Positions 2,462 through 18,787 of a stretch of 34,832 bases of DNA are shown here, piece after piece. This DNA is from a virus: the IMG/VR virus record IMGVR_UViG_3300025138_000152, positions 1-34,832 of that record. One strand, given 5' to 3'. Every line of letters starts with the position of its first letter. Positions within the stretch are counted from its first letter, which is position 1. Below the pieces are notes generated by a model, which saw nothing but the letters and a program-made list of their open reading frames with translations, ran no database searches and was not told the DNA's origin. The translations under genes and the position numbers were made by a program.

Positions 2462-2680
2462 ATGCTAGTAGGTATAGAAGAAAAGGTAATTAGTTTTATA
2501 AGAAAAGAGAAAGAAGAGAATGGAAGCTGCTACGCTTCAAATAAGACGTTCTGCGACACTTTAAAGGTCTCAGAGAGGACTTTATATAGAATTATAAATA
2601 GATTGCAGCAGAGAGGCTTAATTACAAGAAAAACAACTTCAAACGGTCATTACGGTAAAACCCGTAAAATAGACGTATAA
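2462..2680 (+). CDS. Winged-helix (HTH_36-like) DNA-binding protein
   Basis: A 72-residue protein with a winged-helix fold: helix 3-18, the segment CYASNKTFCDTLKVSERTLYRIINRLQQRGLI at about 23-54 containing the helix-turn-helix, and a wing ending in TRKTTSNGHYGKTRKI. The sequence resembles the HTH_36 domain of replication initiators and small regulators. It is the last gene of the rightward lysis segment and faces a convergent minus-strand operon. It is one of two obvious sequence-specific DNA-binding proteins here, so it is a candidate to bind one of the iterated motifs in the control regions. That link is inference. Confidence 0.78.
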   Translation: MLVGIEEKVISFIRKEKEENGSCYASNKTFCDTLKVSERTLYRIINRLQQRGLITRKTTSNGHYGKTRKIDV

Positions 2681-3480: not shown

Positions 3481-3714
3481 TTTATTCCTAACAATACAGT
3501 TACAAGTAATTACAAGTAACTATATATATCGCATAAGTAACTGTATATATACTTAAAAAGAAAAGATATATAAATGTATATGTAGTATATATAAATGTAT
3601 ATATAATTACTTGTAACTATATATATAAAGTAAAATATAAAAAAACAAATTTAATAACCAAATATAATTATATAAAATATTTTATTACTTTTACCTTCGA
3701 TTAAAACATTTATT
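3481..3714. promoter_or_regulatory. Divergent AT-rich control region with iterated GTAACT(A/G)TATATATA
   Basis: No gene is seen in 3425-3714. The imperfect palindrome GTTAC-AA-GTAATTAC-AA-GTAAC occupies 3499-3520. The motif GTAACT(A/G)TATATATA occurs at 3516-3529 (last base differs), 3537-3551 and 3613-3627, all in the same orientation. The stretch also holds runs of alternating TA. It sits between the leftward recombination operon and the primase-helicase gene, a likely place for a divergent operator or a replication origin. Near the right end a TACTTTTA box (3686-3693) could be a weak -7 element for the gene at 3715, but no matching -33 box is seen. Confidence 0.6.
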
Positions 3715-5478
3715 ATGGACGAAACATTTGAGAGTATTGGAATTGAACTAAAGGGAAATAGTAATCAACAGAAATCTAAATGCCCTAACTGTGCTAAAAT
3801 AGGCAAGGAGAATTATAAGGATAATTGTCTAGCTGTTAATATACAGGAGGGAATTTACTATTGCCATAAATGTAATTGGCAAGGTAAGGTTAGTAATAAG
3901 CCACAAACCCTATCAGATATAATACCAAAGAAAAAGATGTATAAGAAACCTGAAAGAAGTAAACTCAAGAAGTTAACTAAGAGAGGTGCAAACTTTCTTA
4001 TTAAAAGAGGAATTACAGAAGATGTTATTAAAGCAAATAAAATAGTTTCTTCTAGTGATGGTAAGAGTATTGTATTCCCATATCTAAAAGAAAGCACTAT
4101 TATAAATTATAAAGCTAGGGGAATTGATGGTAAATGGTTTACGCAATCTAAAGATGCCGAACCTATAATTTATAACTACGATAGATGTATCGCTAGTAAA
4201 GCTATTGTAATATGTGAAGGTGAAATGGATTCTTTATCTTGGGAGGTATCAGGAATCTATGCCCATACATCTGTTAACATGGGTGCGCCTAATGTTGGAG
4301 ATAAGAACATTGATGGTAAGTTAGAATGTATTTCTAATTGCTATGAAGTATTTGAACAGGCTGAAACAGTTTATATTGCAACCGATAATGACGATAATGG
4401 TAGGAATTTAGAAAAAGAATTGGTTAGAAGGATAGGAGACGACAAGTGCTTATTAGTCGATTTAAAGCCTTATAAAGATGCCAATGAGGTATTAATAGCA
4501 GAAGGAGTAGAAAGTCTCAGAAATCGCCTTAAAAACGCCTCTAGTCCTAAGCTAGAAGGTGTGTTCTCAGTTGATGATGTAAGAGAGAGTATGCTAGATG
4601 GTTTTCACAATGGACAAGACAGGGGAACTACAACTTATATTCCTCAGATAGATAAGGCTTGGACTTGGAGAAATGGAGAAGTTAATATTTGGACTGGCTA
4701 TCAAAATGAGGGAAAATCTATGTTTCTTAATCAATTAGCTTGTATAAAGTCAATACAAGACAATTGGAAGTTTGCAGTATTTTCTCCTGAGAATATGCCA
4801 ATGAATGATTTCTTCAATGATATAATTGAAATGTATGTTGGTAAATCAGCAGACCCATACTACAAAAGTAATCAGATGAAATTAGAGGAATACAAAGAGG
4901 CAATGGATTTTGCAAGAAAGCATTTCTTCTTAATATATCCTAAGAAGAATTTTACATTAGATAGTATATTCTCAAGAGCTAAACATCTAGTTAAGACTAA
5001 GGGAATTAGAAGTTTAATAATTGACCCTTACAATACTGTTCAGCATAAAATGCTTAGAGGTGAAAGAGAAGATTTGTATATCTCTAGGTTTATGAGTGAA
5101 TTAAAAAGATTTGCATTAGACAACAATATTTCGGTACATTTAGTAGCGCACCAAGTTACCCCTCATAAAGATGATAATGGAAGATACATTAAGCCTGATG
5201 TCAATAGGATTAAGGGTGGAGGTACATTTGCAGACAAGGCAGATAACGTGATGTTTGTATGGAGACCAAACAGAGGTTTGGATTTCTCAGATAGTTGTGT
5301 TACATTTGGTTCACAGAAGATTAAGAAACAGAAATTAGTTGGCATCCCACAAGAGGTAGATGCAATAGATTTTAACATTAAAACACAAAGGTATTTATTT
5401 AATGGGTCTACACCTTTTACCCAAATAGATTTAGACAGGAGTGAATCAAAGTATGACATTACCGATAGTGGCTTTTAG
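3715..5478 (+). CDS. Bifunctional primase-helicase (T7 gp4-like)
   Basis: A 587-residue replication protein that combines primer synthesis and replicative unwinding. A zinc-ribbon is visible at 23-53 (CPNC and CHKC). The TOPRIM domain follows, with IVICEGEMDSL at 164-174 (E168 as the catalytic glutamate) and ATDNDDNGR at 222-230. The C-terminal DnaB/RecA-like helicase has a Walker A GYQNEGKS at 328-335, Walker B SLIIDPYN at 433-440, a motif SVHLVAHQ at 473-480 and a GGGTFADKADNVMFVWRP motif near 501-518. Length is typical of phage gp4-type proteins. It opens the rightward early block after the divergent control region and overlaps the resolvase gene. Confidence 0.9.
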   Translation: MDETFESIGIELKGNSNQQKSKCPNCAKIGKENYKDNCLAVNIQEGIYYCHKCNWQGKVSNKPQTLSDIIPKKKMYKKPERSKLKKLTKRGANFLIKRGITEDVIKANKIVSSSDGKSIVFPYLKESTIINYKARGIDGKWFTQSKDAEPIIYNYDRCIASKAIVICEGEMDSLSWEVSGIYAHTSVNMGAPNVGDKNIDGKLECISNCYEVFEQAETVYIATDNDDNGRNLEKELVRRIGDDKCLLVDLKPYKDANEVLIAEGVESLRNRLKNASSPKLEGVFSVDDVRESMLDGFHNGQDRGTTTYIPQIDKAWTWRNGEVNIWTGYQNEGKSMFLNQLACIKSIQDNWKFAVFSPENMPMNDFFNDIIEMYVGKSADPYYKSNQMKLEEYKEAMDFARKHFFLIYPKKNFTLDSIFSRAKHLVKTKGIRSLIIDPYNTVQHKMLRGEREDLYISRFMSELKRFALDNNISVHLVAHQVTPHKDDNGRYIKPDVNRIKGGGTFADKADNVMFVWRPNRGLDFSDSCVTFGSQKIKKQKLVGIPQEVDAIDFNIKTQRYLFNGSTPFTQIDLDRSESKYDITDSGF

Positions 5479-5821: not shown

Positions 5822-5988
5822 TGGTTCAGTTATTCCCTATTTATGGGGTTATGCTAGGTTTTAATTATTGGAATACCTCATTAGACCAATTTGAGGAGGA
5901 AGATAACGAAGAGACAGAACACTTGTTTCAAATAATGTTTTTTATAATAGGAATATCTTGTCACGTTTGGACTCAGAAAAAACTTTAA
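5818..5988 (+). CDS. Small membrane-associated conserved phage protein
   Basis: A 56-residue ORF starting MMVQLFPIYG and ending HVWTQKKL. It has two hydrophobic segments (about 3-16 and 39-50) around an acidic middle (DQFEEEDNEETEH). The start overlaps the resolvase stop (ATGATG; a second ATG at 5821 is possible) and its end overlaps the sigma-like gene by 31 bases. I recall very similar short ORFs in this position in other marine Bacteroidetes phages. No function known. Confidence 0.6.
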   Translation: MMVQLFPIYGVMLGFNYWNTSLDQFEEEDNEETEHLFQIMFFIIGISCHVWTQKKL

Positions 5989-6509
5989 TACAACTCTTAG
6001 GAGAGAAGCATAAGGACTGGATTCATATGGCTAAGTCGTTTAAGATAAGCGATGAGGATGCTAATGAATTAGTTCAGGAGATGTATGTTAGGATTTCCAA
6101 GTACATTGAGAACCAAGAAAAGATTATGTATAATAGTGAGGAATTAAACACTTACTATATATATGTTACTTTAAGGAATCTATTCCTATCCAGTTACCAT
6201 AAGTACAATAAGCCAAATCACTTCTTACTAGAAAATGAAGACGATTTTATCGATTCACCTCCTGATATGGAGATAGAAAATTCTTTTAATAACTTGATAA
6301 ATTCAATAGATGAGCAAGTTATTAAATGGCATTGGTATGATAAGAAGATGTGGAACATACACTTCTATTCAAAGATGAGCATGAGAAAAATAGCTAGAGA
6401 AACAAAAATAAGTTTAAGTTCAATATTTAATACATTAAGCAATGGCAAATCAGAAGTCAGGGAAAAAACCATCGAAAAGTACAAAGAGTACAAGAAAAAC
6501 AAAAAGTAA
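5958..6509 (+). CDS. Sigma-70-like / HTH regulatory protein
   Basis: A 183-residue helical protein. The N-terminal part (KHKDWIHMAKSF, then ANELVQEMYVRISKYI at about 35-50) resembles sigma region 2, and the C-terminal MSMRKIARETKISLSSIFNTL at about 136-156 is a helix-turn-helix like sigma region 4. Related phage proteins are commonly annotated as sigma-factor-like. The start is a TTG at 5958, which lies within the preceding small gene; the next in-frame ATG (6024, inside WIHMAKSF) would remove about 22 residues of what looks like conserved N-terminus. It may redirect host RNA polymerase to phage promoters, which would fit the strong promoters of host type found here; this is inference. Confidence 0.68.
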   Translation: MSRLDSEKTLIQLLGEKHKDWIHMAKSFKISDEDANELVQEMYVRISKYIENQEKIMYNSEELNTYYIYVTLRNLFLSSYHKYNKPNHFLLENEDDFIDSPPDMEIENSFNNLINSIDEQVIKWHWYDKKMWNIHFYSKMSMRKIARETKISLSSIFNTLSNGKSEVREKTIEKYKEYKKNKK

Positions 6510-6861: not shown

Positions 6862-7255
6862 TTTAATAAGAGATAAAAAGAAAGTTAAACAAGTAATAGA
6901 TTTTACCGGTGTTCAAAACGGTAAGATTCACCCATCAGATATAGATGCGGTAATGGAATTTGATAACAAGGTTCTTATCTTAATAGAAGTAAAAAGAAAG
7001 CACGTGTTGATTCCAATAGGTCAAAGAATATTATTAGAAAGAATTTGCGACAGTTGGCATATTCCTGAGAAGGCAATAATACTTAAAGTAGAACATGAAT
7101 TTGATGATGCAGAACAAGACATTGTGTTAAGGGAGTGTACGGTAACTAGAACTTATTACAAAGGTAACTGGCACACACTAAAAGAACCATCTAACTTTAT
7201 TGGGTTTGTTAATAATCTTGGAATAAAATGGGAATGTAAAAAATGTAAATTTTAG
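6854..7255 (+). CDS. PD-(D/E)XK nuclease-like protein
   Basis: Starting at the ATG at 6854 the protein has 133 residues. The motif HPSDIDAVMEFDNKVLILIEVK contains D31, then E45-x-K47, with GQ at about 56-57, matching the PD-(D/E)XK nuclease core (acid, strand, ExK, then helix with Gln). Such enzymes in phages act as resolvases or repair endonucleases. Three cysteines lie at the C-terminus (WECKKCKF). A TTG at 6839 would extend the N-terminus by five residues; the ATG is preferred because its ATGAATAG overlap with the preceding stop is typical of this operon. Confidence 0.68.
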   Translation: MNSLIRDKKKVKQVIDFTGVQNGKIHPSDIDAVMEFDNKVLILIEVKRKHVLIPIGQRILLERICDSWHIPEKAIILKVEHEFDDAEQDIVLRECTVTRTYYKGNWHTLKEPSNFIGFVNNLGIKWECKKCKF

Positions 7256-9069: not shown

Positions 9070-9249
9070 ATGAGTTACCTTACTAAGAAGGAATGTTATG
9101 ATGACGTGTTGAAGTCTCTAAAGTTAAATATAATTAGCTATCCTGATAAGGAATTACTTTTAAAGTATTATGAGGAAGATGAGGATTACATTTGTTGTCA
9201 AGGAGTTTTAGAAGCGTATAACGATTATGAAAAACAATTATTATTATGA
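9070..9249 (+). CDS. Small acidic protein, unknown
   Basis: A 59-residue ORF beginning MSYLTKKECYDDVLKSLKL with a strongly acidic centre (KYYEEDEDYICC). It directly follows the exonuclease stop and its own TGA overlaps the ATG of the DnaA-like gene (ATGA). Predicted mostly helical. Three cysteines are present without a clear zinc pattern. No family recognised. Confidence 0.55.
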   Translation: MSYLTKKECYDDVLKSLKLNIISYPDKELLLKYYEEDEDYICCQGVLEAYNDYEKQLLL

Positions 9250-9686
9250 AGTTACAAGAAATTAAGAAGTTAACCAGTCTAGAGTCAGGAATAGATATAG
9301 GCATAAAGAGTAGAGCTAGGGAAGTTGTATATGCTAGAGCAATATATTATAAGTTGTGTAGGCAGTTTACCAAGCAGCCATTGAGTGCTATAGGCAGGGA
9401 AGTTGGAAAAGACCACGCAACTGTATTATATGGAATAAATCTATTTGATGATGTTGTATCTGAGTTTGAAATGGAATACTTAAAAATATATGATAGAATT
9501 AAGTTAGCTATAACAAGTAGTGATGCCAACAAAGAAAAGTACCTATCGCCTAACGTATTCTATAAAAAGAGATATTTAGAATTAGAGGAAGAGAATAGAA
9601 TTATTCGCCATAAGTTTAAATTCCTATTGTCTCAGCTAAAACTCCAAGGTAATAAGTTTACCGATAAGAAAGAGTTTCAGATATGA
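9246..9686 (+). CDS. DnaA domain-IV-like DNA-binding protein
   Basis: A 146-residue protein whose first half matches the DNA-binding domain of the bacterial initiator DnaA: SRAREVVYARAIYYKLCRQ at 22-40, the helix LSAIGREVG at 46-54, and the signature GKDHATVLYG at 54-63, equivalent to GxxDHxTVxxA of DnaA. The AAA+ ATPase part of DnaA is absent. The second half (about 100-140) is a charged helical region likely to form a coiled coil (RYLELEEENRIIRHKFKFLLSQL). It may bind DnaA-box-like or phage iterons and either help or block initiation. It overlaps genes on both sides by four bases. Confidence 0.78.
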   Translation: MKLQEIKKLTSLESGIDIGIKSRAREVVYARAIYYKLCRQFTKQPLSAIGREVGKDHATVLYGINLFDDVVSEFEMEYLKIYDRIKLAITSSDANKEKYLSPNVFYKKRYLELEEENRIIRHKFKFLLSQLKLQGNKFTDKKEFQI

Positions 9687-9985
9687 AAAGTAATTATAGA
9701 CCGCTCCCTGTCGGATTAACTATAGGCAATAGTCATATAGATGGACTGGGACTTATAGCTGATAAAGACTTTGAGTCAGGATATAGCTTTGGAATTACTC
9801 ACGTTTGGTTAGACAATGGAGAAGTTATAAGAACACCTTTAGGTGGTTTCATAAACCATAGCGATAAACCTAATTGCAGAATAACAGAATGTGAAGCTGA
9901 GAAGACTAGAGTTGTTCACGCAATAAGAACTATACAGAAGGGTGAAGAGATTACTGTAAAGTATAGTCTATATAAAATACAATAA
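9683..9985 (+). CDS. SET-domain protein (possible protein lysine methyltransferase)
   Basis: A 100-residue compact SET-like domain. Visible motifs are GLGLIADKDFESG at 21-33 (the G-x-G opening strand), GGFINHSDKPNC at 54-65 (the NHSxxPN substrate and cofactor loop), and GEEITVKYSLY at 87-97 (the E-I-T-x-x-Y motif). SET proteins transfer a methyl group from S-adenosylmethionine to lysine. No pre-SET or post-SET cysteine clusters are present. It sits between a DnaA-like protein and the terminase genes. The target (host or phage protein) is unknown; the minimal length could also mean a domain that has lost activity. Confidence 0.78.
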   Translation: MKSNYRPLPVGLTIGNSHIDGLGLIADKDFESGYSFGITHVWLDNGEVIRTPLGGFINHSDKPNCRITECEAEKTRVVHAIRTIQKGEEITVKYSLYKIQ

Positions 9986-12470: not shown

Positions 12471-13007
12471 ATGAGAGTAACAGAAGATTCATATGAGTTA
12501 TCAAATAGGCTTCACGAACAAGGAGTCAAGAGGGAAGATATAGCTTTAAACGTATTAGGTTACACTATAGATGACCAAGGTGTGGTAAGAAATAGATTCA
12601 ATAATATAATTGGAAGCAAAGACAAGTATAGCTATCAGAAGTTTCAAATTACTTTAAGCGGTAAATGCATTGTTGTATTTTCTCACAGACTACAAGCATT
12701 TAAGAAATATGGCTATAAACTATATGAAAAAGGCATAATGGTTAGGCATAAAGATGATGTTAAATCAAATAATACTGTAGATAATATTTTAATTGGAACA
12801 GCTAAAGATAATTATGATGACAGGGGTAAAGAAGCAATTTCAATTAGTCAGAAAAAAGCTACAGAGGCTAGTAAAAAATATCCTGATGAGTTGGTTAAGG
12901 AAATAAAGCAATTCTATAGGGATAATAATAATCCTCAAACATTAACAATGAATAAATATAACATATCAAATTCAAGCACACTTTGGTATATAATAAACAA
13001 AAGATAA
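12471..13007 (+). CDS. HNH-like endonuclease with C-terminal HTH
   Basis: A 178-residue protein. The segment VVFSHRLQAFKKYGYKLYEKGIMVRHKDDVKSNNTVDNILIGTAKDN at about 68-114 follows the HNH_3 homing-endonuclease layout: a first His (H72 or H93), the 'H.(D/N)..K.NN.(V/I)DNI..GT..(D/E)N' block with N101, N105 and N114. The C-terminal part (LVKEIKQFYRDNNNPQTLTM then a short HTH-like tail) may bind DNA. It may be a free-standing homing endonuclease or a packaging-associated nuclease. It lies in frame order within the operon and ends six bases before the next ATG. Confidence 0.65.
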   Translation: MRVTEDSYELSNRLHEQGVKREDIALNVLGYTIDDQGVVRNRFNNIIGSKDKYSYQKFQITLSGKCIVVFSHRLQAFKKYGYKLYEKGIMVRHKDDVKSNNTVDNILIGTAKDNYDDRGKEAISISQKKATEASKKYPDELVKEIKQFYRDNNNPQTLTMNKYNISNSSTLWYIINKR

Positions 13008-13012
13008 ATAAT

Positions 13013-13540
13013 ATGAGAGAGATAAGCGGACTTTATAAATATAATGAATTGAAAGCAGTCTCTAAAATAGAGGCTTTATATCAGCAACGTGAAGCTGTAA
13101 TCGAAAAAGGATACATCTATAGTGAGGAATCTATAAATAGCTTAATTGTATTTGCTGAGATACTACACTCGGAACTGAAGGAGTTTGAAATAGATTTCTA
13201 TGGGTTTAAGAATAGTTTCTGCAAATTCAAGAAAGTATTCAAGTATAAGAATATAGACTTTGAAGATATAATAAAAACGATGAGAGAACATGATGGACTC
13301 TTCACCGGATACTACATCGACATAACGCTTCACGCTGCATTAGAGGAGTGTTTAGGGGATAAGGAATACAATCCTAACACAATACTACAAAGATGCTTTG
13401 ACGAGTGGCTAATCGCCTGTCAGGAGGAAGCTGCTGTATATTTAACAGAAGATTATTTAGTCCATAAGTTTAGCCATAATAATTATTTATTTTTGGAGGA
13501 TGGCACATTCTTTTCGCAAGAAAATAATTACATAGCGTAA
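13013..13540 (+). CDS. Hypothetical protein, unknown
   Basis: A 175-residue soluble protein from the ATG at 13013. It is helical in its first two thirds, with Trp and Cys near EWLIACQEEAAVYLTEDYL and a C-terminal LFLEDGTFFSQEN motif. The frame extends upstream to a TTG at 12983, but that would overlap the HNH-like gene by 25 bases and offers no benefit. The stop TAA at 13538-13540 is at the same time the first three bases of the first iteron of the adjacent array. No family recognised; it closes the operon that ends at the terminator 13629-13653. Confidence 0.65.
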   Translation: MREISGLYKYNELKAVSKIEALYQQREAVIEKGYIYSEESINSLIVFAEILHSELKEFEIDFYGFKNSFCKFKKVFKYKNIDFEDIIKTMREHDGLFTGYYIDITLHAALEECLGDKEYNPNTILQRCFDEWLIACQEEAAVYLTEDYLVHKFSHNNYLFLEDGTFFSQENNYIA

Positions 13541-13629
13541 ATGTGAATTCAATACCCCTAAATGTGAATTCAATAGGGGGTCAAATGTGAATTCAATACC
13601 CCCCCCGAACTATAAATGTGAATTCAATA
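13538..13629. repeat. Four-copy 16-base iteron array
   Basis: The identical core AAATGTGAATTCAATA occurs at 13539-13554, 13560-13575, 13583-13598 and 13614-13629. Start-to-start distances are 21, 23 and 31 bases, close to two, two and three helical turns, so proteins bound to each copy would lie on one face of the DNA. Each copy is followed by a run of C (copies 1, 3 and 4) or G (copy 2). The core contains the palindrome TGAATTCA. The C and G runs can also pair: CCCCTA 13555-13560 with TAGGGG 13574-13579, or GGGGGT 13576-13581 with ACCCCC 13598-13603, which are mutually exclusive. Likely an operator or a replication-initiator site. Confidence 0.85.
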
Positions 13630-13653
13630 CCCCCTTTCTTTGGGGGTTTTTTT
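13629..13653 (+). terminator. Intrinsic terminator at the end of the iteron array
   Basis: CCCCC (13630-13634) and GGGGG (13642-13646) enclose the loop TTTCTTT and are followed by seven T residues (13647-13653). The C run belongs to the fourth iteron copy, so the array is built into the terminator. Confidence 0.8.
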
Positions 13654-13676
13654 GTCTATTTTACATAATAAATAAT

Positions 13677-13788
13677 ATGTTAAAGTTTTGTTAAATGTTT
13701 GGCTATGTCAAAAATTCTATTAATTTAACGGGTGCGTGTTATCCTTATATAGTTCATTGATTTTGCCAAATGTTAAAGTTTTGTTAAA
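13677..13788. repeat. 19-base direct repeat, two copies
   Basis: The 19-mer ATGTTAAAGTTTTGTTAAA occurs at 13677-13695 and again at 13770-13788, 93 bases apart, in non-coding DNA between the terminator of the preceding operon and the promoter of the small-gene module. It may be an operator pair or the remnant of a local duplication. Confidence 0.7.
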
Positions 13789-13865: not shown

Positions 13866-14027
13866 ATGGAATTACAAAGAATTTTAAGGGAAATCGAAAT
13901 TATTAAAAACAAAAAATCGTTATTAGAAAGCAAAAAACTTAAAATAGATATTGAGCTTAATAATTTGGCTAAAAAAAGAAGTAGTTTATTCTATTCGTTG
14001 CATCAAATTCATTTTAATAATAATTAA
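13866..14027 (+). CDS. Small coiled-coil protein, module gene 1
   Basis: A 53-residue ORF, MELQRILREIEIIKNKKSLL at the start, with heptad-like Ile and Leu and a charged Lys/Glu pattern through residue 40, then FYSLHQIHFNNN. It is the first gene after the probable promoter at 13802-13831 and carries the A-rich leader ending AACACTATG that is repeated before the next genes. No family recognised. Confidence 0.6.
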   Translation: MELQRILREIEIIKNKKSLLESKKLKIDIELNNLAKKRSSLFYSLHQIHFNNN

Positions 14028-14047
14028 CACACTAAATTAAAAACACT

Positions 14048-14194
14048 ATGAAAAAAAGTTATTATGTATTCTTTAATGTTGACAATCAAATTTATGAAGT
14101 TATTGATTGCACTTATACTGTTAAACAGCCAGTAGTTAAAACTTTTAAGTATGAGGCTAATGCTTACCAATTTATGAAAAACTTAAAAAACTAA
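14048..14194 (+). CDS. Small protein, module gene 2
   Basis: A 48-residue ORF beginning MKKSYYVFFNVDNQIYEVID and ending QFMKNLKN, mainly beta-strand in character with a helical end. It is preceded by another copy of the leader CTAAATTAAAAACACTATG. The presence of the shared leader supports translation although no homologue is recognised. Confidence 0.6.
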   Translation: MKKSYYVFFNVDNQIYEVIDCTYTVKQPVVKTFKYEANAYQFMKNLKN

Positions 14195-14205
14195 ATTAAA
14201 ACACT

Positions 14206-14487
14206 ATGAAAACAGAAAAACAATTTACAAGAACCAATGGCTTTAAACAAAAAATTTGGTTTGCGAATAATTACGGAATAAGTTTAATAAATGTTCCATT
14301 TACTGCCTCTGGCGATGATTTTAGCTATGGTCTCGAATGCGCATTAATCCACAAAGAGGAAGAAAATATCATATCTAATAATAAGAAATTTAGTAAGTTT
14401 TGTCATGGGGATTCTGTCAAAGCATATTTAGATGGTGAAGACTTATTAAAAGCATTGAAATTAGTTAAAAAATTAAAATGTAGATAA
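14206..14487 (+). CDS. Hypothetical protein, module gene 3
   Basis: A 93-residue protein starting MKTEKQFTRTNGFKQKIWFA. A beta-rich first half (NYGISLINVPFTASGDDFSYG) and a helical Lys-rich C-terminus (DLLKALKLVKKLKCR) are visible. Its leader and first six codons are nearly identical to those of the gene at 14517 (MKTEKQ in both), a local duplication. Function unknown. Confidence 0.62.
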   Translation: MKTEKQFTRTNGFKQKIWFANNYGISLINVPFTASGDDFSYGLECALIHKEEENIISNNKKFSKFCHGDSVKAYLDGEDLLKALKLVKKLKCR

Positions 14488-14886: not shown

Positions 14887-15492
14887 ATGGAACTTTTAAC
14901 ACAAAACACAAAACTAAAAAGTACGTCAAAGATAATAGGCAAAAGGGTTTTTAATTTCGGTATTACCGCATATAAAAGTATAACGGGCAAAATAATTTGT
15001 CCGTTCGCTGATAAATGCGTAAAGTATTGTTATGCACAAAAGGGTGCATACTCCTGGTCTAATGTGAAACCCGCATTTGAAAAGCGTTACGAAATAACAA
15101 AACAAGATAATTTCATTGAGTTAATGAATAAGGAAATAAAACGTAAAAAAGTAGACTTTCTAAGGGTACATGATTCGGGGGATTTTTATTCTAATGCCTA
15201 CATTCAAAAGTGGTTTAAAATAGCGAACCAAAACCCGAACGTGAATTTTTATGCTTACACAAAAAGCATTCCTTTGTTTAAAGGATTGGCAATACCTAAA
15301 AATTTTGATATAATATTTTCGGAGGGTTCAAAAGTTGACGAACTTATAAATGTCAAAACGGATAGGCACGCAAAGATTTTCAATAGTGTTGAAGAACTAG
15401 AAAAGGCGGGTTATATCAACGCATCCAAAAACGATTTAAATGCAACAAAATTCTTTACTAATAACCACAAAGTTGGTTTGGTATATCATTAA
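14887..15492 (+). CDS. GP88-family protein
   Basis: A 201-residue protein with the pattern of the Gene product 88 family known from phages and plasmids. A cysteine cluster CPFADKCVKYCYA at 38-50 (C38, C44, C48) is followed by GAYSWSNVKPAFEKRYEI, FLRVHDSGDFYSNAYIQKWF at about 91-110, and FYAYTKSIPL. Conserved Ser-Gly-Asp-Phe and the YTKS motif are intact. The C-x5-C-x3-C spacing and the barrel-like pattern recall radical-SAM enzymes, but no activity is established as far as I know. It is the largest gene of the small-gene module and the only one with a recognisable wide family. Confidence 0.78.
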   Translation: MELLTQNTKLKSTSKIIGKRVFNFGITAYKSITGKIICPFADKCVKYCYAQKGAYSWSNVKPAFEKRYEITKQDNFIELMNKEIKRKKVDFLRVHDSGDFYSNAYIQKWFKIANQNPNVNFYAYTKSIPLFKGLAIPKNFDIIFSEGSKVDELINVKTDRHAKIFNSVEELEKAGYINASKNDLNATKFFTNNHKVGLVYH

Positions 15493-18082: not shown

Positions 18083-18787
18083 ATGGGAAAAAGTAGAAAA
18101 ATAACTTTAAGCGTTCCAACAACATTGGGAGACATAACTCTTGGTCAATACCAAAAGTATATGAAAGTTATCGATATTAACAAAGATGATGACTCATCTG
18201 TTGATTTTGTAAATAAAAAGCTAATTGAGATATTTTGTGATGTAAATCTAAGTGACGTTGATAAAATACCGCTAAAAGAGGCTGAGAGAGTCGTAGAAGT
18301 GATTACTAAGGCATTCGAACAAAAGGATAAGCTAATACAACACTTTACCCTTAGAGAAGTGGAATTCGGTTTTATACCTAAACTAGATGATATTTCTTTA
18401 GGGGAATATATTGATTTAGAAAATACAATCGTAGACTGGCAGAAAATGCATAAAGCTATGGCAGTTTTATATAGAGCTGTAAACTTTAAGTCAAAAGACA
18501 AATACACTATAGCACCTTATGACCCTAATGATGAGGTAAGCGAAATAATGAAAGAAATGCCATTAGATGCCGTAATGAGTTCAATGGTTTTTTTTTACGA
18601 TTTAGGGAAGGAATTATCGATAGCTACCCTGAACTTTATAGAACAGGAGATGAAGAAGGGGAGGACTTCTCTGCCGAAGGAGCTTTTGGAAAAAAATGGG
18701 GATGGTATCAGTCAATATATGCAATCGCTAAAGGAAATGTCCTCGAATTTGATAGAGTTACACAAGAGTCCCTTTTTAAGTGTTTAA
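18083..18787 (+). CDS. Putative tail assembly chaperone (G-like)
   Basis: A 234-residue protein. Patterns I know from this family in Bacteroidetes phages are visible: VPTTLGDITLGQYQKYMKV at 11-29, VEFGFIPKLDDISLGEYIDLE at 93-113, DWQKMHKAMAVLYRAV at 118-133, and a C-terminal GDGISQYMQSLKEM. It would act as the chaperone that coats the tape measure protein before tube assembly. The downstream frame (see the -1 extension) and the runs of T (18588-18596) and A (18690-18696) make it the G part of a G/GT pair. It is the first gene of the structural block. Confidence 0.62.
   Translation: MGKSRKITLSVPTTLGDITLGQYQKYMKVIDINKDDDSSVDFVNKKLIEIFCDVNLSDVDKIPLKEAERVVEVITKAFEQKDKLIQHFTLREVEFGFIPKLDDISLGEYIDLENTIVDWQKMHKAMAVLYRAVNFKSKDKYTIAPYDPNDEVSEIMKEMPLDAVMSSMVFFYDLGKELSIATLNFIEQEMKKGRTSLPKELLEKNGDGISQYMQSLKEMSSNLIELHKSPFLSV

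What the first reader, a model, noticed from the sequence alone, without database searches (positions are those of the whole stretch)
13538..13654. Four phased iterons fused to a terminator, with alternative C/G-tract hairpins
Seen: the identical 16-mer AAATGTGAATTCAATA four times, at start-to-start distances of 21, 23 and 31 bases (close to 2, 2 and 3 helical turns). The first copy overlaps a stop codon and the last supplies the C arm of a T7 terminator. Copies end in C runs except copy 2, which ends in a G run, so copy 2 can pair with copy 1 (CCCCTA/TAGGGG) or with copy 3 (GGGGGT/ACCCCC) but not both. Inference: a co-operative protein-binding array or origin that also controls read-through into the small-gene module. 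I know no described element of this form.
Basis: partly seen in the sequence, partly recalled or inferred. Interest (0 to 1): 0.72.

Follow-up and report, generated by a model that had tools for sequence, protein, structure and literature searches.

The report
One-way operator-like arrays in marine flavophages
The repeated 16-letter word is one member of a family of one-directional DNA sites that a whole group of uncultured marine phages places at the borders of its gene blocks, spaced almost always by odd numbers of bases; they most likely let a phage protein switch transcription on or off there, and both the sites and the spacing rule appear undescribed.

Summary
In detail: four exact copies of AAATGTGAATTCAATA (13539-13629), spaced 21/23/31, the last forming an intrinsic terminator. 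It is not unique. More than 160 IMG/VR loci carry such arrays, essentially all in one group of uncultured, apparently flavobacterial phages; cultured kin (Nonlabens P12024, Tenacibaculum JQ, Olleya Harreka) have none. The site is asymmetric: TRTRAATYYAATA followed by a run of G or of C. In a motif-blind sample of relatives chosen by terminase, 177 sites lie on the terminase strand and 1 on the other. About 65% sit in the 10% of DNA that is intergenic, at syntenic transcription-unit borders, overlapping host-type -7 boxes or supplying a terminator arm. In some genomes an array is read antisense inside a gene and encodes its N-terminal extension. Alternative G/C hairpins are not conserved. Best reading: operators and stoperator-like sites for a phage DNA-binding protein, convergent with mycobacteriophage L5; the prime candidate is a DnaA-domain-IV-only protein (window 9246-9686). 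Binding is untested and the parity rule is unexplained.

The parts
13539..13554 (+). site 1 (16-mer; conserved core 13544-13554), followed by C4 13555-13558
13560..13575 (+). site 2 (core 13565-13575), followed by G5 13576-13580
13583..13598 (+). site 3 (core 13588-13598), followed by C8 13599-13606
13614..13629 (+). site 4 (core 13619-13629), followed by C5 13630-13634, the 5' arm of the terminator
13629..13653 (+). intrinsic terminator: ACCCCC-TTTCTTT-GGGGGT followed by a T run
   Evidence: the same construction in 8 of 20 array locus classes
12983..13540 (+). upstream ORF (likely start ATG 13013; unknown function, phrog_10310) whose stop codon overlaps site 1
13866..14487 (+). start of the small-gene module downstream of the array and terminator
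9246..9686 (+). DnaA-domain-IV-only protein, prime candidate for the site-binding protein (inferred)
   Evidence: PF08299 E 3e-13; PDB DnaA matches 3pvp and 1j1v; in 12 of 13 array-bearing records
2462..2680 (+). small winged-helix HTH_36 / replication-initiator-like protein, second candidate
   Evidence: PF13730, PHROG replication initiation, 11 of 13 records
5958..6509 (+). possible sigma-like protein (weak region-2 match, below the Pfam cut-off), third candidate
   Evidence: homologue of P12024L gp35 annotated 'Sigma-70 region 2'
3715..5478 (+). primase-helicase of TOPRIM/DnaB type; relevant only to the 2-nt-step rival

Best explanation
The array is one node of a phage-wide set of asymmetric double-stranded DNA binding sites, each about 13 bp (TRTRAATYYAATA) plus a G or C run, all facing the direction of transcription. 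A phage-encoded DNA-binding protein occupies two to six adjacent sites at each transcription-unit border. Where sites lie over the -33/-7 promoter region or the start site they act as operators; where they lie at gene ends and lead into a terminator, as in the window, the bound protein halts RNA polymerase and strengthens termination, as stoperators do. In the window this would insulate the small-gene module from read-through coming out of the terminase/HNH block. Shown: the sites, their conservation, single orientation, positions and spacing rule. Inferred: that a protein binds, that it is the DnaA-domain-IV protein, and the sign of the effect.
For: Single orientation: 177 vs 1 sites in motif-blind relatives; 91 vs 1 in 12 whole records. 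Positions: syntenic borders, upstream of the early operon, after TerL, in the small-gene module, before F8/tail genes, between F19 and F20/portal. -7 boxes (TAnnTTTG) sit at preferred offsets of -8, +14 and +20/21 from the site start, unlike the reversed control. 5 locus classes are promoter-type and 8 terminator-type. DNA-level selection: in some genomes the array lies antisense inside F29 and is translated as a repetitive N-terminal extension that F29 copies elsewhere lack. Exact spacing survives substitutions inside the C8 run in L269. Candidate: the DnaA-IV protein is present in every record except one truncated contig, with invariant residues matching R399, R407 and H434 of DnaA (residue roles from memory). 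Site half ATTCACA resembles DnaA box ATCCACA. P12024L lacks arrays and has lost the histidine.
Against: No binding or transcription data. The odd-spacing rule is not predicted by ordinary operators, and nothing explains why a G run and a C run are interchangeable. Arrays in F29 face against that gene's own transcription. 7 locus classes show neither a recognisable -7 box nor a terminator. No CI-like repressor or integrase was found, so an immunity repressor of the L5 kind is not apparent. The DnaA-IV candidate rests on co-occurrence and a partial motif resemblance.
Confidence: 0.5

Rival explanations
1. RNA-level element: nascent transcripts carrying GUGAAUUCAAUA repeats bind a phage protein that alters termination or RNA processing at gene-block borders (nut/put-like or processing site).
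For: Sites follow the direction of transcription, cluster at 3' ends and terminators, and variation at the site is mostly by transitions.
Against: Sites overlap the -33/-7 region and start sites of promoters, where they are not in the transcript of that promoter. No conserved structure: run pairing at chance level, fold z -1.1, no Rfam family.
Confidence: 0.15
2. Replication sites for a machine that moves in 2-nt steps: the primase-helicase (DnaB-type) reads the sites on one strand, and odd spacing offers a site in each of the two step phases.
For: One strand genome-wide; neighbour spacing odd; all 113 arrays with three or more strong sites contain both parities; the phages encode a TOPRIM/DnaB-type primase-helicase.
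Against: Sites are longer than known primase sites and are tied to promoters and terminators. No replication evidence. The both-phases argument was made after seeing the data.
Confidence: 0.1
3. Selfish or drifting mini-repeat (like small palindromic elements) that spread within this phage lineage without a regulatory role.
For: Copies sit even inside a coding frame and copy number varies among relatives.
Against: Syntenic positions, single orientation, strict spacing and preferred promoter offsets.
Confidence: 0.1
4. Origin iterons with a linked terminator, as the reader proposed as one option.
For: Direct repeats of an asymmetric site; DnaA-IV and RepO-like proteins in the genome.
Against: Usually several arrays per genome at unrelated operon borders, including 2-site arrays at promoters; no AT-rich unwinding region was demonstrated.
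Confidence: 0.05

Closest known systems
Stoperators/operators of mycobacteriophage L5 and other cluster A phages (PMC9283540)
   Same: About 13-bp asymmetric sites, many per genome, in promoters and in short intergenic spaces, orientation following transcription.
   Different: Unrelated sequence and hosts; tandem arrays with an odd-spacing rule, a G/C run and fusion to terminators; no recognisable cluster-A-type repressor, CI-like HTH_3 or integrase in the phages.
DnaA boxes / DnaA as a transcription regulator
   Same: Candidate protein carries the DnaA box-binding domain; one side of the site (ATTCACA) resembles TTATCCACA; same-direction direct repeats.
   Different: The site is longer, lacks the full DnaA box, and the protein has no AAA+ domain; binding untested.
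Plasmid/phage replication iterons
   Same: Short direct repeats spaced about 20 bp.
   Different: Dispersed at several operon borders, overlapping promoters and terminators.
T4 MotA box / class II activator sites
   Same: A site in the -30 region with a host-type promoter box just downstream in some loci.
   Different: Also present over start sites and at terminators, in arrays.

Membership tests
L5-type stoperators | asymmetric ~13-bp site present many times per genome | tested here: met
   3-16 sites per record in 12 relatives, 4 in the window; fewer than the >20 of L5
L5-type stoperators | sites in promoters and in short intergenic spaces | tested here: met
L5-type stoperators | orientation follows transcription | tested here: inconclusive
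   177 vs 1 on the terminase strand, but nearly all genes lie on that strand, and arrays in F29 keep the orientation although F29 is transcribed the other way
L5-type stoperators | bound by an HTH + stoperator-domain immunity repressor of a temperate phage | tested here: inconclusive
   no integrase or HTH_3 repressor found; the stoperator domain itself was not searched for
L5-type stoperators | bound protein stops elongation | not testable with these tools
   needs experiment
DnaA boxes | TTATNCACA-type nonamer | tested here: not met
   sites contain only the ATTCACA half; TTATNCACA occurs in the window at chance level
replication iterons | array at a single origin next to the initiator gene | tested here: not met
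   several dispersed arrays in most relatives; in the window the array is not next to 2462-2680 or 9246-9686
nut/put RNA antitermination sites | conserved RNA structure (boxB or put stem-loops) | tested here: not met
   no complementarity between neighbouring runs beyond chance, fold z -1.1, no Rfam match
helically phased co-operative operator array | spacings at whole helical turns | tested here: not met
   15, 17, 19, 21, 29, 31 common; 20 absent; 16, 18 and 22 rare between strong sites

The most novel reading that the evidence does not exclude
The odd-spacing rule is functional: neighbouring sites must sit an odd number of bases apart so that a nucleic-acid machine or filament working in 2-nt (2-bp) steps always meets a site in phase. 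That would be a spacing code of period two, unlike the 10.5-bp or 3-base periods known for regulatory arrays and codes.
Probability: 0.15. Interest if true: 0.9.

Novelty: new variant of a known kind. Interest (0 to 1): 0.72.

Why it matters
If the reading holds, a large group of uncultured marine flavophages independently evolved a stoperator-like punctuation system, possibly run by a stripped-down DnaA. The spacing rule (odd numbers only) and the interchange of G and C runs have no explanation I know of, and both can be tested with a reporter plasmid. For Bacteroidota phages, whose transcription control is poorly known, it also gives a ready marker for transcription-unit borders.

Tried and rejected
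Alternative hairpins between C and G runs: rejected, since neighbour run letters are close to independent and swap without compensation. Helical phasing: rejected by the spacing table. Single origin: rejected by several dispersed arrays. Integron, CRISPR or retron-like repeats: considered, no supporting feature seen and no Rfam hit. Phage-RNA-polymerase promoter (AATA-GGG): considered, but CCC is equally allowed and the sites come in tight arrays. Known phages: BLASTN of the region and of a composite array against 50,697 phage records gave nothing credible. GTDB genomes: no double TGTGAATTCAATA; the relaxed pattern gave 7 hits, about the level I would expect by chance, one of them (TMED96) looking genuine. 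P12024L/S, Tenacibaculum JQ and Olleya Harreka: no arrays. Literature: a search for GAATTCAATA with 'phage' gave 26 papers, none of the 20 listed evidently about this from titles and abstracts. No structure prediction was run, because the DnaA-IV assignment already rests on Pfam and PDB sequence matches.

Full report
WHAT IS THERE. The window is an IMG/VR virus record of 34,832 bases. At 13539, 13560, 13583 and 13614 lie four exact copies of AAATGTGAATTCAATA, on the + strand, spaced 21, 23 and 31. They are followed by C4, G5, C8 and C5. The last C5 forms, with a G5 and a T run, an intrinsic terminator. The array lies between an unknown ORF (phrog_10310), behind an HNH nuclease and the terminase, and a module of small genes.

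IT IS A FAMILY. Two exact 16-mers close together occur in seven further IMG/VR contigs, and relaxed patterns give many more. After merging, 165 loci hold arrays with at least two strong sites, and all but one match proteins of the window's phage group. Two of the 165 (L110, which has no match, and L086, with a single one) look like chance hits in coding repeats and were left out, leaving 211 distinct arrays. The nearest cultured phages by terminase or primase-helicase, or by the DnaA-like protein, namely Nonlabens phages P12024L/S (TerL 52% identical), Tenacibaculum phage JQ and Olleya phage Harreka_1, have no arrays. A search that did not use the motif (terminase relatives) found sites downstream of the terminase in 38 of 41 loci with enough sequence. 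The array is therefore a trait of a phage lineage, not of this genome alone. That the hosts are flavobacteria is inferred from the cultured kin and the TAnnTTTG promoter boxes.

THE SITE. Over 260 distinct sites the pattern is T-R-T-R-A-A-T-Y-Y-A-A-T-A followed by GG or CC, often extended to runs of 3-8. The core part of this pattern was used to collect the sites, but near-misses around the arrays also differ mostly by single transitions. Directly after the core, GG or CC occurs 404 times against 29 for GC or CG; the reversed control pattern shows nothing of the kind. At the same locus in close relatives GG, CC and CCC replace each other (L037/L039/L054). The TGAATTCA centre is palindromic but the whole site is not.

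ORIENTATION AND PLACE. In 12 whole records, 91 of 92 sites point one way; in the motif-blind sample 177 point with the terminase and 1 against. About 65% fall in the 10% of DNA that is intergenic. They recur at the same borders: in front of the early recombination/SSB/HTH operon, after TerL, in the small-gene module, in front of F8 and the tail genes, and between F19 and F20/portal. In promoter-type loci the host-like -7 box TAnnTTTG (consensus in PMC9723704) starts 8 bases before, or about 14 or 20-21 bases after, the site start, so sites lie between the -33 and -7 regions or on the start site. In terminator-type loci the run behind the last site is the 5' arm of the terminator, as in the window. 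Of 20 locus classes 8 are terminator-type, 5 promoter-type and 7 neither. In five records the array lies antisense inside a minus-strand gene (F29), where it is translated as an N-terminal extension with repeats such as TPIEFTETPIEFT; F29 copies elsewhere in two relatives lack the extension. That argues for selection on DNA, not on protein.

THE ODD RULE. Neighbouring sites are an odd number of bases apart. In the motif-collected set, 170 distinct spacers are odd and 23 even. In the motif-blind set, 93 pairs are odd and 9 even, and 8 of the 9 span a weaker site in between, leaving one true exception, 16 bases. By locus class the distinct spacings are 55 odd and 8 even. Spacing 20 never occurs although 19 and 21 are common. 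Spacers of one length have unrelated sequences, and in the window's relative L269 the C8 run became CCCCTCCC with the spacing of 31 unchanged. All 113 arrays with three or more strong sites contain sites in both parities. Phages of one group are related, so these counts are not independent, but the rule holds across about 20 locus classes. The lengths also bunch near 18, 30 and 40 (counts), which leaves room for a loose helical preference under the parity. I know no mechanism that predicts this. A machine working in 2-nt steps would, but that idea came after the data.

WHAT DOES NOT HOLD. The alternative hairpins are not a conserved feature: complementary neighbours occur 115 times of 216, about 107 expected from the margins; the window transcript folds only slightly better than shuffles (z -1.1); Rfam has no match. 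Helical phasing at 2 and 3 turns fits the window's 21 and 31, but not the commonest spacing in the group, 17.

HOW IT MOST LIKELY WORKS. Best reading: binding sites for a phage-encoded regulator, acting as operators at promoters and as stoperator-like roadblocks at gene ends. The parallel is mycobacteriophage L5, whose repressor binds more than twenty asymmetric 13-mers in promoters and short intergenic spaces, with orientation following transcription, and fails when sites are reversed (PMC9283540). Candidates are proteins found throughout the group: a DnaA-domain-IV-only protein (PF08299, 12 of 13 records; the exception is a truncated contig), an HTH_36 protein (11 of 13) and a weakly sigma-like protein. 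The DnaA-IV protein is preferred because residues matching R399, R407 and H434 of E. coli DnaA are invariant among nine members (the roles of these residues are from memory), because the site's reverse complement contains ATTCACA, one change from ATCCACA of the DnaA box, and because P12024L, which lacks arrays, has lost that histidine. This is correlation only. The phages lack integrase and CI-like HTH_3 proteins and are probably lytic, so the regulator would more likely time gene expression than maintain lysogeny.

VERDICT. A real, lineage-wide and apparently undescribed regulatory-site family; a new variant of the dispersed operator/stoperator kind in what it seems to do, with a spacing rule that has no precedent I know of.

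Noticed in passing
G010 (L142/L143), reverse-complement coordinates 6870-6990; G008 (L140/L141), reverse-complement 3531-3637 and 18291-18374: A second array family, the palindrome TACACTTAGTGTA in 5-6 copies right after F8 and before the tail genes; its spacings (19, 16, 29) do not follow the odd rule. Looks like a separate operator system.
   Followed up: partly
13677-13695 and 13770-13788: Exact 19-mer repeat ATGTTAAAGTTTTGTTAAA behind the terminator; the same word follows arrays in many relatives (e.g. L001, L014, L035).
   Followed up: no
G003, G005, G008, G009, G010 (F29, minus strand after TerL): F29 seems to have a TATATTTG promoter and a short hairpin with a T run directly before its start codon, i.e. 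a possible attenuator, next to the array (read by eye).
   Followed up: no
L335:298-327 and L337:2586-2615: A Flavobacteriales MAG (TMED96) has TATGAATTCAATAGGGG-TATGAATTCAATACCCCC (spacing 17) behind a plastocyanin-like gene, in what looks like chromosomal DNA without genes of the phage group.
   Followed up: partly
phage record OQ791282.1 (hit H9): 'Shigella phage Henu10' carries a terminase at the same coordinates and identity as Riemerella phage ON933637; the host label may be wrong.
   Followed up: no
9683-9985: A 100-aa SET-domain protein (PF00856) encoded next to the DnaA-domain-IV gene, unusual in a phage of this size.
   Followed up: no
14887-15492: A GP88 family protein (PF17338, E 3e-38) in the small-gene module.
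   Followed up: no
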